A DNA stretch of 64,000 nt. Origin: Tillus elongatus. Lineage: Eukaryota > Arthropoda > Insecta > Coleoptera > Cleridae. Below the pieces are notes generated by a model. That model saw nothing but the letters and a program-made list of their open reading frames with translations, was not told the origin of the DNA and made no database searches. This document shows, piece by piece, positions 4,465 through 60,060 of the stretch (its first letter is position 1; each line of letters starts with the position of its first letter). The position numbers were made by a program, and so were the translations under genes. The stretch covers positions 15,263,471-15,327,470 of the forward strand of contig OZ023267.1 of NCBI GenBank assembly GCA_964006375.1. Direction: 5' to 3'.

Positions 4465-5062
4465 CATGTATATTTCTTTTGCAAGTGGCTTGGATGAGTT
4501 CCTTAGGCAGGAAATTTGACCCAGGTTTTCCCGCAAGATGCTGTGTTTTCCTTCGGAACAAAATTATACCTTCGCAAATAACAAAGCAAGGGCAACCAAA
4601 TGTGGTACGCGTGTTTGTATTATAAAGGGCGCATCATGTGGCAAAATTAGGTCTGTAAGTTTAAATACAAAAAAGTTATGGGCATTTAAAGAAAATAAAT
4701 TTAAGGTTTTCTTCAAAATGTCAAAGTCGCGATTTGAAACGTCAAAATTGGCAACATTTAGGCAAAGAACCTGAAACAAATACGAATTATGTAAAGAAAA
4801 TGTCATAAGAAGGGTGTTCTGCAAACGCTTAAGTTGCAGTTTCAACCGCCATTGTCCTTCGTTTTACTAAAATATTTACAGAAAATTAATTTCAAATAGA
4901 CCCTTTCCTTGATGCTTTGGTGGTAGTTTATGGTTTAACGGTCTATAATTTTTAGCTAATTTTTGTAGAAAAAAATACATTAACGAGGGGACCGCGCCTT
5001 TTGAATTTTAAAAATATTTCTTCAAATGAGTGCAAACTAAAATCCATATCCATATTGTTATA
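4465..5062 (+). repeat. HTA element, right flank followed by a second left-flank module
   Basis: Begins in the right-flank block (GCAAGTGGCTTGGATGAGTT), passes AACGTCAAAATTGGCAACAT, and ends in the variant left-flank block near 4985 (GAGGGGACCGCGCCTTTTGA). The terminal GCGTCCAGA end and TA array are missing. Confidence 0.75.
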
Positions 5063-5591
5063 ATTACTACACACCTCTATCTATATATTTTTGAAAATCT
5101 CTGTTATAAAATATGTTTCGTAACTTTCATAACATGATGCGAGAGCTGTAAGCTTGCATTGTTTGGAAATACGTTATCATAGTAACAACGATCCAGTTAC
5201 GGGACCAGGTGGGTATGTAAATTCATGTGCGAATAACGCCTATTCTGGTACGGGCCAGTGTGCATAGAGAAGACGGTTATACAAGCGTTTGTTCTATTCT
5301 TTCTTCGTGGCCAAACCTGCTGCTGATATGGACTAACAACTAGTCTTACCGGTCTTCTTGCAAACGTCCCGTACGGGAAAACTGCAACGTTCACATACTA
5401 CATCATCCAGTCCAATAACAATCATGGTAATTGTAACCCCAAATCTGAACTCTCCACTTTTCACCACGTGTGTTAGATTTTATTGTTGTTTATAAAGTTG
5501 TTTTCTTGCGAAGCATGTGGGAAAATGTAGAACGTATCTGAAAAAAATCGTAGAAAATAATATAATTTGCTAAATCACGTCGATGAAAAAT
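5063..5591. other. Stretch with no recognised gene
   Basis: Short frames are present but none has a recognisable domain. No clear repeat match within the window. Confidence 0.4.
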
Positions 5592-12198: not shown

Positions 12199-12889
12199 CG
12201 TTCAGACTTTTTTATTATATTATACGATTAAGATATTTACTGTAGTTTTGCCAATTGTGTTAAAATAAAGTAAATTAACTTTTTCATTGAATAAACCACA
12301 ATCTTGTGCGGCTAGAAGCCCCCCCCCCCCCAGTATAAAACATAAATAAACCTCCTAAAACTTAAACCACCTATGTAGTTATTATGTGTCTATATATGTT
12401 AGAAGTGTGCACGCACCATTAAGCTGATTTTGTCTTGAGGCTTAGTTATTGCACCACGTGGCAATTTTGCCTTTTATCATTATATTGACCTAAATTTGCA
12501 ACAGGTCCCCTTCCCCCTCCGTCCTAAGTGTTCGCTGCCATTGACCGAATGATAAACAAATGGCAAGCTGGTTATGTTGCTCAAGCCTTCTAGATACGCA
12601 TGTTTGTGGATAACTGTCGAAATTCGTTGAATTTGTGAAGCATATGAATGGGTTAATTTCACCGTTATCTGCTGTTTTTATCCTAGTTACATATGATTTA
12701 TTATTATTCTGATTTTGTTCACAAAACAGTAAAAACAAAATAACAACCACATGGATGGAAAATTTTAAGAACCAGATGTTTGTATTGTTTTTGAAAATAC
12801 CAACAGCTAAAAATAAACATAATTGGTATTTTAAGTCACAAAATTTTATATGTGATTATTTTTCATTTGTTCATTGTTCTTGCCCTTAC
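12199..12889. other. Stretch with no recognised gene
   Basis: Includes a run of 14 C at about 12318-12331. The short frames have no recognised domain. Confidence 0.4.
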
Positions 12890-13005
12890 TTGATTAAATC
12901 GTTCCATACTGAATATCGAAGTAGAGACTTCTCCCGCTACACAAGTGCTTGCTTTTTCCTCTGCAACTAGTTTCGTTTCTTACGGCATCGTTAGGCAGGA
13001 GAAAA
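12890..13005 (-). mobile_element. Penelope-like tail fragment, degenerate hammerhead motif
   Basis: Resembles 59930-60045 (GTTCCATACTGAATA, CTTTTTCCTCTG). The minus strand gives UAACGAUGCCGUAAGAAACG followed by AAAC, a decayed version of the ribozyme-type stem-loop. Confidence 0.5.
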
Positions 13006-23810: not shown

Positions 23811-24665
<855 letters not shown>

Positions 24666-24680
<15 letters not shown>

Positions 24681-25402
24681 TTTGTGACGTTTTTGTTCCT
24701 CCAGTTTGTGCTTGGCTGCTTTAGCATCGTTAACTGCCTTAGCAATACCATCAGCACCACCACCCAGAGCACCAAGAGCTGATAGACCACCAAATATAAG
24801 AGGTAACAGTGAAAGGAAGCCTCCGCTTTTAGGTATTGGAATAACTTGAGGGTTCAGCACATTCTTACGCCCACCAATCTGTTTAAAAATTGCATGAGCG
24901 ATATCAAACACAGCATTCTCTGATGGAATAATGTTTCTGTCTTTTATAACTTCCATAATCAGACTAAGAATGTTTTTAAAGGGAACTTTCTTCTTCGGTT
25001 TTGAGTTGGATACATCAAGACCCATGACAAGCTTTCTTTTGCATACAGACTTGGAGAATACTTCTCTGGCTTCACTGTTGGTGTCTGTATGCAGTATGGA
25101 CAAGTTTCACCAAGTAAGGGCAACGACAATCAATGAATTGAAGCTTTCTTTTAATTTTAATGGTGTTAGTAACGCTCCAAGCGGCTAACTTTTCACCAAA
25201 ACTTGCGTCCTTTGACTTAACTCTCTCCCAAGCTCGGTTCTCCAACACTTCGTCGGCTCGATGCCCTTCACTTAATTTTTTTGATTAAGAGTAAGCGATG
25301 TCGTAGTCTCGACAAGCACGATCTAAAGGATTGATACCTTGATCACCTTTAGCAAGACGTTCTTTAAGTTTAGTGCCCGGATCACAAAATTGATAACCAG
25401 GT
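24666..25402 (-). pseudogene. Virus-like phospholipase A2 domain plus hydrophobic protein module (broken)
   Basis: Read on the minus strand. From 25400 a region has a calcium-loop-like CDPGTKL and an active-site-like CRDYDIAYS, the pattern of the phospholipase A2 domain in parvovirus VP1 proteins, which I also recall in Polinton/adintovirus-type elements. The catalytic His is Tyr (25303-25305) and a TAA stop follows at 25285-25287. At 25141 a 112-bp segment flanked by the direct repeat AAGCTTTCTTTT shifts the frame. The second block (24666-25103) has a basic stretch (SNSKPKKK) and a Gly/Leu-rich hydrophobic segment (LSALGALGGGADGIAKAV), then a charged helix. Role in a virus: membrane breach and a core or minor capsid protein (inference). 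Densovirus relic is the alternative. Confidence 0.6.
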
Positions 25403-25918
25403 ATATAGTTATTATGCAAGATACGAGAAAAAGTTGTATACGTTAATGATAGTGTGTCTTGAGCTGTATCTTATAAAATTATTTTGACAATCACAGGGTG
25501 GTCCATACGTCGTTGATGATACCTACAATTTTTTTGCGATTACCCTTATATTATTGCATTTTTGCATTTTTTATTGAAATATGATGCATATTTGTAAGAA
25601 AAAAGTGGAGACGCAGTAGGTGTGTTTTGGTAGCGATTTTCTTTCTATGCTTCAGATCTCAGTAGCTCAATTTGCTATTAACCCAAGGCTTGATGGCTAG
25701 GAAACCAGTTTTCTCGGAAACATTTTAAGTTTATTTTAGAAAATTTTTTGTACAGTTTCAAACAATCAGTTACTTTGATAAAATATGGTACATTGTTTCT
25801 ACTATATAGGTTATAGCGGTAACCAGATTGACCCGTGCTTGCATTAGAGACATATATTTGCTTTTAAAAACATTTTAATGAAAATTTACTTCCATAACGC
25901 ACTTGCTGCGTCCAGATT
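25403..25918 (+). repeat. HTA element, right part of the copy carrying the virus-like module
   Basis: Resumes at TTATTATGCAAGATACGAGA, passes the middle block, and contains a diverged 320-bp unit ending CCATAACGCACTTGCTGCG. Confidence 0.8.
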
Positions 25919-26096
25919 TTTTTTAAAGCTAATAAGACTTGAACTAATGTCTTACCAAAATTTGCAGGATGCGATAGCATGGATCTGTGTCAAGCCGGGA
26001 AATTTTGGTGCTTACCTCGTATCTAAACGTTTACAGAAAATCTTTGGGCGAGTTGAATAGAAAGGCTTGTTCATTCCAAACAAATGTTTTATTTCT

Positions 26097-26143
26097 TGTC
26101 CCGACGCGTTTCGGCCTTTTTAACTGGCCATCCTCAGGGGAAT
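26097..26143 (-). ncRNA. Hammerhead-ribozyme-like motif, left arm
   Basis: The minus strand gives CCC then CUGAGGA, a GGCC/GGCC stem II, GAAA, the self-complementary ACGCGU, and C, then GGG, which can pair with the leading CCC as stem I. All core boxes are present. The tiny stem III suggests activity as a dimer, as known for Penelope-type motifs. Confidence 0.65.
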
Positions 26144-26247
26144 CTAAAATTTACAAAAGGCTTGTCAGAAAAACTGAGTTTTCCGGTAAGCAGTCAGTTT
26201 TTCCGGTAGGAAGTCAGTTTTTCTGACAAGCCTTTTGTAAGTTCTAG

Positions 26248-26295
26248 ATTCCCCTGAGGATGACCTGTTAAAAAGGCCGAAACGCGTCAGGACAA
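26248..26295 (+). ncRNA. Hammerhead-ribozyme-like motif, right arm
   Basis: CUGAGGA, stem II GACC/GGCC with one mismatch, GAAA, ACGCGU, C. Opposite in orientation to the motif at 26097-26143. Confidence 0.6.
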
Positions 26296-26339
26296 GGAAT
26301 AAAACATTTGTTTGGAAATAAGAGCCTTTTTATTCGACT

Positions 26340-27444
26340 AACCCAAAGATGACAACCCCAAATAGTTTGACGTTTATGAAGAATATGTTTACAGAAAAAA
26401 ACTATTATTCATCGGTGGCGTCGTGGGGCTGTTAGGCCACTTAACGGGACGACAAGCTATATAAACATATTTCTTCTTTACCGCCAACGATTGGTGTAAA
26501 GTTATAATTATAGGCTGACGTTAAATTGTTAAATAAACAAATAAACACATAAATAATGAATAAAAGCTCGTCAACAATACTGATTACTACGTAGTGAACC
26601 TACTATATTTACAATGTAACAAAATAGCTTTTGCCTATAAACAATAATTTTAAGTACTGATGAGTCTACATAAATTGTATTAGCACCGACAAGTATTCTT
26701 CAAGATGTAAAGAACGGTACCTCATAGTTTGTAAGCCACTAGAGTAAGTCAGTAAGTTGCCCTGTCGGCGAATGCACTGCTGAAGTTTCATTTCTATCTC
26801 AGATCACACGTCGAGAGCATCAGGAATTACAAGTCGAAAACGTTGAACGAACGAGCGAAGCTTCCAAAACCAGTCATCATCGAGCCGAAAGCTCGAATAA
26901 AGAGCGGAAGTCCAAGCTATAAACCGCTCGTACTTCCGTCCGCACTTCGCCAGAATTAATTTTATCGTATGCAATATTTGCGGGCCCGCTTCTCATTAGA
27001 TAATTTTGATATGGTTTTCTTCCTCTAACATTCTAACCGCTCTGTTCTATCTGCATCAGTGAATTCGTATAATATGCGGGGAATGGCAATTTTTAAAATG
27101 ACGGTTAAAAATGCCACACCCTCATAGCACTGGTAAAAGTGCTTTAGTTTTACCTTTGTTTAGACGTTCATTCGACCACGACACGACGGTCTGTTCTGCA
27201 TATTTAAATGTTCGCTCGCTATTTATGTTGTCCCTGTCTGTCGTCTATAAACCTGCACGGGTTGCTGGCGAATATAAATGGTGTTGTTTTTTTAATTTCC
27301 TGTGTATTATGCCCCAAACGGCATGTTATTTGAGGTACCTACTTTTAAACGCGTATGTTACGTTTGCATTATAATCTTAGATAAGTTAGAAATTCTTTTA
27401 AAAACAAGCTTTTATATTTTAGGCGTACTAAAACGAAAAAAAGT
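26340..27444. other. Long stretch with no recognised gene
   Basis: No frame with a recognisable domain; AT-rich with scattered short frames. Confidence 0.4.
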
Positions 27445-38435: not shown

Positions 38436-39032
38436 GGAAATAACAATTTTACAACAACAAATATAGGTCTGTAAGTTTAATGTCAAAAAAGTTATGGGCA
38501 TTTAAAGAAAAAAAATTGGGTTTTTCTCCAAACGTCAGTCGCGATTTGAAACGTCAAAATTGGCAACATTTAGACTAAGGACCTGAAACAAATACGTATT
38601 ATGTAAAGAAGATATCACAAGAAGAGTGTTTCGCAAACCCTTAAGTTTCAGCTTCAACCGTCATTGTCCTTTATTTTACTAAAACATTTCTAGAAATTTC
38701 ATTTCAAATAGACCCTTTCTCTGATGCTTTGGCGGTAGTTTTATTTAGGTTTGTGGTTTAACGGTCTATAATTGTGCGCAAATTTTCGTAGAAAAAATTC
38801 GTTAATGGAAAGACCGCCACTATTGAGTTTTTAAAAGATTTTTTTCAAATGAGCGCAAAGTAGGCTATATATGGGTTTAGTTTTAGTTTTTATCTGTTTA
38901 CATATATACAGGGTGACGTATTTCTACGGTAAGGCTCACTATAATTGTTATTATACAAGATACGAGAAAAAATTGTATACGTTAATTATAGGGTGTCTTG
39001 AACTGCATCTTATGAAATTATTTTGACAATCA

Positions 39033-53893: not shown

Positions 53894-54345
53894 TGAACCG
53901 TAACAAAACGTAAATTTGTCCCGAGATTTAAAAGCTCACAATAAATCTAAAAACTTTTTAAAAAGGCTTAAAGAGCTACCCTCTAGAATTTAAGCTGAAG
54001 ATAAAAATGGAAGTAACAGCACACAGCACAAACATTAGCAAGCCATGCAGCTAAGAAGAAACTGAATGAGAGTGAAATTGGAAACGGATTTTTTATTTTT
54101 AATGAAAATTGAAAACGCCAAAATGGCGTTGTCTACTTACTTGTCCATTACTAAACTGGACTAAAAAACTATACAGCTGAATGTCCAAGGTACACGTTTC
54201 ATCTGTTGCTGTAGGATGGATCCACTGGAGTCAGGGGTGTTACTAACACGAACAGAAGCAAGATTGCCCTGAGGATGACCGATTAACAAGTCGAAACGCG
54301 TCTGGACAAGGAATAAACATTTGTTTGGAAAGAAAAAGCCTTTTT
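53894..54345 (+). mobile_element. Probable Penelope-like tail
   Basis: Identified by the ribozyme-like motif at 54265-54308 and the following AAGGAATAAACATTTGTTTG, shared with the palindrome at 26052-26339. The upstream part has no clear frame. Confidence 0.5.
54265..54308 (+). ncRNA. Hammerhead-ribozyme-like motif
   Basis: CUGAGGA, stem II GAC/GUC, GAAA, self-complementary ACGCGU, then C. The core boxes are complete; same type as at 26248-26295. Confidence 0.6.
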
Positions 54346-54472
54346 ATCCCACTCACCCAAAGAAAACAAAAGTAAATAAAATATAGAAAACATTGCTTCA
54401 GTGAGTGAGTGTATAATTGGGGATGACCTCAAACACCATAGGCTTTTTTAAAATTTAAAAGAACAAAAGTTC

Positions 54473-59689: not shown

Positions 59690-60060
59690 TTTAATTCGTT
59701 AATTGTTACTAATGATTTTACGTTTTCGTGGTCAGCTTTGATTGAAATCCTGAATGGTTTCCCGGTTGCTACGCCGTGTTCGAACTCAATGGGTTGCTAC
59801 CTACTAAGTGGGTTCGAACACGACCTAACAGCCGAGAAGCCATGAACCATAAGTAAATTCAGACACGGCATAACAGCTCGGAAACCATTCAAGATTCCAA
59901 TCGTTGATTGGTGATTCCCTAACTTGGTGAAACCGTTCCATACTAAATACAGACGTAGAGAGTTTTTCTCTGCCTTCACAAATGCTTGTTTTTTTTTCTC
60001 TGGGACGGGTTTCGCCTTTTACGGCATCGTCAAGCAGCAGACATTTTTCTAATTATGTTA
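59690..60060 (-). mobile_element. Penelope-like tail fragment
   Basis: Contains inverted repeats (ATGGTTTCCCGGTTG / CGGAAACCATTC) and, at 60000-60043 on the minus strand, UUGACGAUGCC...GGCGAAACCCGUC, a near-hammerhead stem. Related to 12890-13005. Confidence 0.55.

What the first reader, a model, noticed from the sequence alone, without database searches (positions are those of the whole stretch)
24666..25402. Virus-like phospholipase A2 and hydrophobic-protein module captured inside an HTA copy
HTA sequence stops at about 24680 and resumes at about 25403, while the homologous HTA at 38880-38960 is continuous there. Between them lie two blocks with the calcium-loop and active-site pattern of the parvovirus VP1-type phospholipase A2 and a Gly-rich hydrophobic segment with a basic leader. 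Such modules belong to densoviruses or Polinton/adintovirus-like elements. It is broken by a stop, a His-to-Tyr change and a 112-bp insertion. Capture of viral gene pieces by a rolling-circle-like element would be notable.
Basis: partly seen in the sequence, partly recalled or inferred. Interest (0 to 1): 0.85.

Follow-up and report, generated by a model that had tools for sequence, protein, structure and literature searches.

The report
Stray viral-transposon gene scrap
A 611-base scrap of a virus-like transposon's phospholipase gene is stuck inside an unrelated repeat in an animal genome, most likely as a one-off patch of a broken chromosome; the gene and this kind of patch are both already known.

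Summary
An HTA repeat stops at 24682 and resumes at 25402. Between them, on the minus strand, lies a broken parvovirus-type phospholipase A2 (PF08398, E 2.9e-7) plus a Gly-rich hydrophobic stretch. The two "blocks" are one gene: residues 23-226 of a 273-aa ORF in a Maverick/Polinton-type element of about 11.2 kb, found in at least 39 other places of this genome, with integrase, A32-like ATPase, protease, double-jelly-roll capsid, long TIRs and 6-bp target duplications. Phospholipase A2 in insect Mavericks is published (PMC5803895). The window holds only the inside of that gene: no element ends, no target duplication. About 40 bp of HTA is missing and the joins share 1 and 3 bp. Each join was found exactly once in 1.72 Gb. 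This fits end-joining "filler" repair; nothing shows that HTA captured and spread the piece. The internal insertion is a later 100-bp repeat with a 12-bp duplication. HTA looks DINE-1/HINE-like. The locus is ordinary. The donor family, in which I found no PolB although PolB Mavericks abound in the genome, is the more interesting side finding.

The parts
23817..24682 (+). 5' part of the HTA copy (HINE/DINE-1-like; 5' inverted repeat about 23817-23828, then a TA microsatellite)
24682..25040 (-). C-terminal block of the phospholipase gene fragment (residues 107-226 of the 273-aa ORF of L019); 92.8% identical to L019 4793-5151
25029..25040 (.). first copy of the 12-bp duplication flanking the secondary insert
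25041..25140 (.). 100-bp secondary insert (hairpin-type repeat), not matched in any of the 39 other copies scored
25141..25152 (.). second copy of the 12-bp duplication
25141..25404 (-). N-terminal block: phospholipase A2 domain (residues 23-110 of the ORF); 91.7% identical to L019 4541-4804; broken by a stop and by changes at the active site and calcium loop
25402..25926 (+). 3' part of the HTA copy, ending in a 5-bp stem-loop and a T run (similarity to other copies ends at 25916-25926); shares 3 bp (25402-25404) with the fragment

Best explanation
The piece is an internal fragment (611 bp before its own later insertion) of the phospholipase A2 gene, probably a minor virion protein, of a Maverick/Polinton-type element that is abundant in this genome. 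A double-strand break inside an HTA copy was sealed by end joining with this fragment as filler DNA, or by template switching onto a Maverick copy, with loss of about 40 bp of HTA and joins at 1 and 3 bp of microhomology. The scrap then decayed and took a 100-bp repeat that made a 12-bp target duplication. Shown: identity of the donor gene, breakpoints, missing HTA bases, microhomology, each join found once, decay. Inferred: that a break was the trigger, the end-joining route, and the virion role of the intact protein.
For: Same-genome donors: 39 other places scored, 84-95% identical per block (40 of 4205 candidates scored). In 20 of the 39 that I fetched, 20 of 20 continue into donor sequence on both sides (two of them, L009 and L011, only over a short stretch on one side); the window has none. 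The ORF is open over 273 aa in 4 of 5 copies looked at (L016, L018, L019, L023; 208 aa in L020). HTA sites without the fragment: of 12 copies fetched from the 39, 9 have 39-41 bp between the two breakpoints, one 26, one 46, and one 404 with a separate insertion (three alignments broke off a few bases from the breakpoint and were corrected by hand). Microhomology T and TAT, no target duplication, no element ends. Whole-genome pattern scans with up to 3 mismatches in 24: each join 1 exact match; other matches 6 (right) and 37 (left), against 2 and 49 for the backwards control.
Against: One to three bp of microhomology is close to chance by itself (the numt study counts a single base as blunt joining). 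The exact donor copy was not found (best 95%, over one block only), so end joining and template switching cannot be told apart. The empty sites are paralogous HTA copies, not the same locus in a relative. No reads were seen. The 6 right-side near matches exceed their control of 2; three of the six were read and show no chimera, three were not read.
Confidence: 0.82

Rival explanations
1. HTA, a HINE/Helentron-like element, captured the gene piece during rolling-circle transposition, as Helitrons capture gene fragments.
For: HTA has HINE-like ends. PMC4067079 (passages) holds it likely that HINEs capture host sequence at some rate. Capture by filler DNA would leave similar joins.
Against: No second copy with either join was found, so no transposition after the event is seen, and HTA lost about 40 bp at the joins.
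Confidence: 0.08
2. A whole Maverick inserted into this HTA copy; two later deletions removed both sides and left only the middle of one gene.
For: Maverick-type elements with 6-bp duplications occur in this genome (2 of 2 copies read to both ends).
Against: Two independent deletions would have to end inside HTA with a net loss of only about 40 bp and leave one 611-bp internal piece; no Maverick flank remains in the window.
Confidence: 0.08
3. The module is an endogenous densovirus (parvovirus) piece.
For: The domain matches PF08398 and the model of an intact copy resembles densovirus phospholipase domains.
Against: The DNA is 92-93% identical to a gene that lies between a Maverick-type ATPase and protease; the 120 listed relatives are 249-330 aa proteins with PF08398 as their only precomputed domain.
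Confidence: 0.01
4. The chimera is an assembly artefact.
For: No reads were available.
Against: Both parts have diverged by 5-10% from the nearest other copies scored, and the fragment carries its own insertion with a duplication, so this looks like an aged locus.
Confidence: 0.01

Closest known systems
Insect Maverick CAP protein with phospholipase A2 domain (Sf Maverick 1 and 2; PMC5803895, passages read)
   Same: Short Maverick ORF with an N-terminal parvovirus-VP1-type phospholipase A2, in elements that also have ATP, INT and PRO genes
   Different: Here only an internal, decayed piece outside any Maverick; in the local donor family I found no PolB, which the Sf Mavericks have
Filler-DNA repair of double-strand breaks (for example numts in primates; PMC2567098, abstract and passages)
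   Same: Non-self-mobile internal piece, target deletion, short microhomology, no target duplication
   Different: The filler is Maverick DNA, not mitochondrial DNA; inferred from paralogous empty sites; the numt study saw deletions in only 41 of 90 insertions
DINE-1/HINE non-autonomous Helentrons (PMC4067079, passages)
   Same: HTA: inverted repeat at the 5' end and subterminal at the 3' end, 3' stem-loop, T-rich flanks, microsatellite
   Different: By eye the 3' subterminal repeat lies about 25 bp from the end, nearer than the 38-60 bp given for mite HINEs; autonomous partner not tested

Membership tests
Maverick/Polinton (donor element) | Retroviral-type integrase | tested here: met
   L016 copy: PF00665 5.7e-12, 46.2 vs 32.6 bits; C-terminal chromo match below cut-off
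Maverick/Polinton (donor element) | A32-type packaging ATPase | tested here: met
   L019 copy: PF04665 1.1e-8, 35.3 vs 22.8 bits
Maverick/Polinton (donor element) | Cysteine protease | tested here: met
   L019 copy: PF02902 3e-5, 24.4 vs 20.7 bits. The ORF is also listed in L016, L018 and L020, but not in L023
Maverick/Polinton (donor element) | Double-jelly-roll major capsid protein | tested here: met
   L019 copy: PF21738 5.2e-77
Maverick/Polinton (donor element) | Long terminal inverted repeats and 6-bp target duplications | tested here: met
   L016+L044 and L023+L046: repeats of about 570 bp, 99.5 and 96.5% identical; duplications AGCATT and GTCACG. That 6 bp is the family mark is recalled
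Maverick/Polinton (donor element) | Protein-primed DNA polymerase B | tested here: not met
   Longest ORF 401 aa in L016+L044; no PolB match among 17 protein entries scanned from four copies' loci (about 12 distinct genes). Small or broken frames were not scanned. PolB matches in open frames of about 1040 aa lie elsewhere in the genome. I therefore call the donor Maverick-type, not a full self-synthesising Polinton
Parvovirus-type phospholipase A2 (PF08398) | Profile match above curated cut-off | tested here: met
   Window block 2.9e-7; L019 ORF 1.7e-11
Parvovirus-type phospholipase A2 (PF08398) | Calcium loop and His-Asp active site | tested here: not met
   Kept in 20 of 20 aligned sequences; lost in the window piece, which is a dead fragment of the family
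Densovirus/parvovirus insertion | Phospholipase domain inside a VP or next to an NS gene | tested here: not met
   Neighbours in donor copy L019 are Maverick-type genes
HINE/DINE-1 (HTA) | Short subterminal inverted repeats and 3' palindrome | tested here: met
   TAGTGAATTTTC exact in 6 of 8 other left ends and its complement exact in 3 of 7 other right ends in the window, the rest and the finding's copy with mismatches (by eye); stem ACGCA/TGCGT folded for this copy only
HINE/DINE-1 (HTA) | Autonomous Helentron partner with Rep/helicase | not tested
   PF14214 search not answered
Filler-DNA end joining | Target deletion, no target duplication, microhomology, unique site | tested here: met
   microhomology is only 1 and 3 bp

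The most novel reading that the evidence does not exclude
The donor family is a distinct lineage of about 11.2 kb Maverick-type elements with integrase, capsid, ATPase, protease, a phospholipase/membrane-active fusion and a KilA-N/DUF3627 gene but no PolB. It may be copied in trans by the PolB-bearing Mavericks of the same genome, that is, behave as a packaged satellite of them.
Probability: 0.3. Interest if true: 0.45.

Novelty: new member of a known kind. Interest (0 to 1): 0.17.

Why it matters
Little for the locus itself: it is one more inert scrap of a mobile element, probably used as repair filler. It is a caution that 'gene capture by a rolling-circle element' needs a junction-uniqueness test. 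The donor elements matter more: recent, near-identical insertions with virion genes but, as far as seen, no polymerase of their own, in a genome with many open PolB frames.

Tried and rejected
Densovirus origin: rejected by the gene order of donor copy L019. Spread of the chimera by HTA: not seen in four junction searches. Other Maverick pieces in the window: blastn with L016 and L044 hit only 24682-25404; L009 also hit HTA-type repeats that lie beside it; tblastn of nine L016 proteins hit only this locus. One IMG/VR scan found one distant relative, L029, not pursued. PHROGs gave only weak matches. Model of the L019 protein: mean pLDDT 71.4, blocks of 79-96 for residues 21-110, low for much of 171-273. 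Foldseek gave 0 PDB matches at E <= 0.001 and 5 BFVD matches at E <= 0.001: one entomopoxvirus phospholipase-like protein, two uncultured-densovirus proteins, two without a name. Phmmer against PDB sequences gave parvovirus VP1, best 8.5e-4. Codon positions: the window blocks differ from L019 at 16, 7 and 25 first, second and third positions; donor copies L010, L011, L012, L015 at 6-9, 4-10 and 21-27; L016 and L018 at none. This fits donor lineages under selection plus later decay here, but is too small for a date. Host not identified: the four named relatives among the 120 listed are two beetles and two Rickettsia records of beetles, the latter perhaps host contamination (that both hosts are beetles is recalled).

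Full report
What is there. The window lies at G000:C6:15263471-15327470 in a 1.72-Gb genome. HTA sequence ends at 24682 and resumes at 25402. Between them the minus strand holds a parvovirus-type phospholipase A2 piece (PF08398, E 2.9e-7, above cut-off) and, in another frame after a 112-bp gain, a basic then Gly-rich hydrophobic stretch.

Donor. Searching the same genome gave 39 other places among 40 candidates scored of 4205. I fetched 20 of the 39 with about 10 kb each. In 20 of 20 the similarity runs on into donor sequence on both sides (L009 and L011 only over a short stretch on one side); the window has no such flank. Six of the 19 others match L016 over a stretch longer than 4 kb at 98-99.4% (L018, L019, L020, L021, L023, L025). 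In L019 the window piece falls wholly inside one 273-aa ORF: 25404-25141 matches L019 4541-4804 and 25040-24682 matches 4793-5151, residues 23-110 and 107-226. L019 also encodes an integrase (PF00665), an A32-like ATPase (PF04665), a Ulp1/adenovirus-like cysteine protease (PF02902) and a double-jelly-roll capsid protein (PF21738, 5.2e-77). Two copies read to both ends (L016+L044 and L023+L046, 11,250 and 11,186 bp by coordinates) have inverted repeats of about 570 bp beginning AGTAGG and 6-bp target duplications AGCATT and GTCACG. No PolB gene was found: the longest ORF is 401 aa, and no polymerase matched among 17 protein entries scanned (about 12 distinct genes); small or broken frames were not scanned. 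PF03175 matches above cut-off, many in open frames of about 1040 aa, lie elsewhere in the genome (77 of 809 candidates scored). A KilA-N plus DUF3627 ORF of 312 aa is open in L023; L016, L018, L019 and L020 list only a 129-aa ORF there, in L019 matching DUF3627.

The protein. 2927 proteins match the L019 ORF at E <= 0.001 among 4858 candidates; 120 of the 120 listed carry PF08398 and are 249-330 aa long. In 20 of 20 aligned sequences two calcium-loop glycines and the His-Asp pair are invariant. The predicted structure is confident in the phospholipase part; its matches at E <= 0.001 in BFVD include an entomopoxvirus phospholipase-like and two densovirus proteins, and there were none in PDB. 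In the window the His reads Tyr, a calcium-loop Gly is changed, and there is a stop. It is a dead fragment; intact copies exist elsewhere. The likely role of the intact protein, a membrane-breaching virion component, is inferred from parvoviruses and from the published Sf Maverick CAP (PMC5803895, passages).

How it got there. Twelve of the 39 HTA copies from the left-junction search were fetched. Between the equivalents of 24682 and 25402 nine have 39-41 bp, one 26, one 46, and one 404 with an unrelated insertion. The window lacks this stretch. The left join shares 1 bp (T) and the right join 3 bp (TAT) between HTA and donor. There is no target duplication and no donor end. Pattern scans of the genome, up to 3 mismatches in 24 bases, found each join exactly once; further matches at 2-3 mismatches were 6 for the right (backwards control 2) and 37 for the left (control 49). 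Three of the six right-side near matches were read and are not chimeras; the rest, and the left-side ones, were not read. A once-found internal fragment with target loss and microhomology is what filler-DNA end joining leaves (compare PMC2567098, abstract and passages; by its rule a single shared base counts as blunt). Capture followed by rolling-circle spread is not seen.

HTA. Among eight other left ends and seven other right ends in the window, the 5' repeat TAGTGAATTTTC is exact in six and its complement near the 3' end exact in three, the rest differing at a few bases; flanks are T-rich, and the finding's copy has a TA microsatellite and a 5-bp 3' stem-loop. This agrees with HINE/DINE-1 elements (PMC4067079, passages). 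An autonomous partner could not be sought.

The secondary insert. 25041-25140 (100 bp) is flanked by a 12-bp duplication (25029-25040, 25141-25152) and is not matched in the 39 other copies scored. A longer relative (339 bp, L024 3857-4195) sits in donor copy L024, also with a 12-bp duplication, TTAAACTAAACT, and a long internal inverted repeat. It is a later, unrelated insertion.

Verdict. Phospholipase A2 genes in Mavericks are in print. The listings of two searches of the held library for Maverick with KilA-N or without PolB showed no paper on a PolB-less, KilA-N-bearing Maverick; I read only listings and a few passages, so this is far from exhaustive, and Starrett et al. on adintoviruses was not held.

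Noticed in passing
L023 8962-9900; L016 9084-9473; L016+L044 as a whole: The donor Maverick-type family (about 11.2 kb) carries a KilA-N/DUF3627 gene (open over 312 aa in L023; only a 129-aa ORF listed in L016, L018, L019, L020) and no PolB was found, although PolB loci abound in the genome. Six of the 120 listed protein relatives sit on contigs of 10.3-10.9 kb, which may be similar elements.
   Followed up: partly
window 25041-25140; L024 3857-4195: Hairpin-type repeat inserted with a 12-bp target duplication in both places; family not identified. Weak relatives at window 59891-59979 and 12870-12915.
   Followed up: partly
L035, within 258-661: Another HTA copy carries an unrelated insertion of about 360 bp in the same stretch; by eye it looks like a tRNA-derived SINE (recalled motif).
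   Followed up: no
window 26040-26350: Imperfect palindrome of about 310 bp (86% between arms), with pieces also at 54261-54363.
   Followed up: no
genome-wide, PF03175 matches: Some PolB matches lie in opposite-strand pairs about 12 kb apart (for example C5:117391400 + and C5:117403353 -), as if paired or palindromic Maverick insertions.
   Followed up: no
both ends of the donor phospholipase protein (L019 4475-5293): Conserved GxGLYLK-type repeats near the C-terminus and a GxGxxN motif near the N-terminus in the alignment of 20 sequences; role unknown.
   Followed up: no
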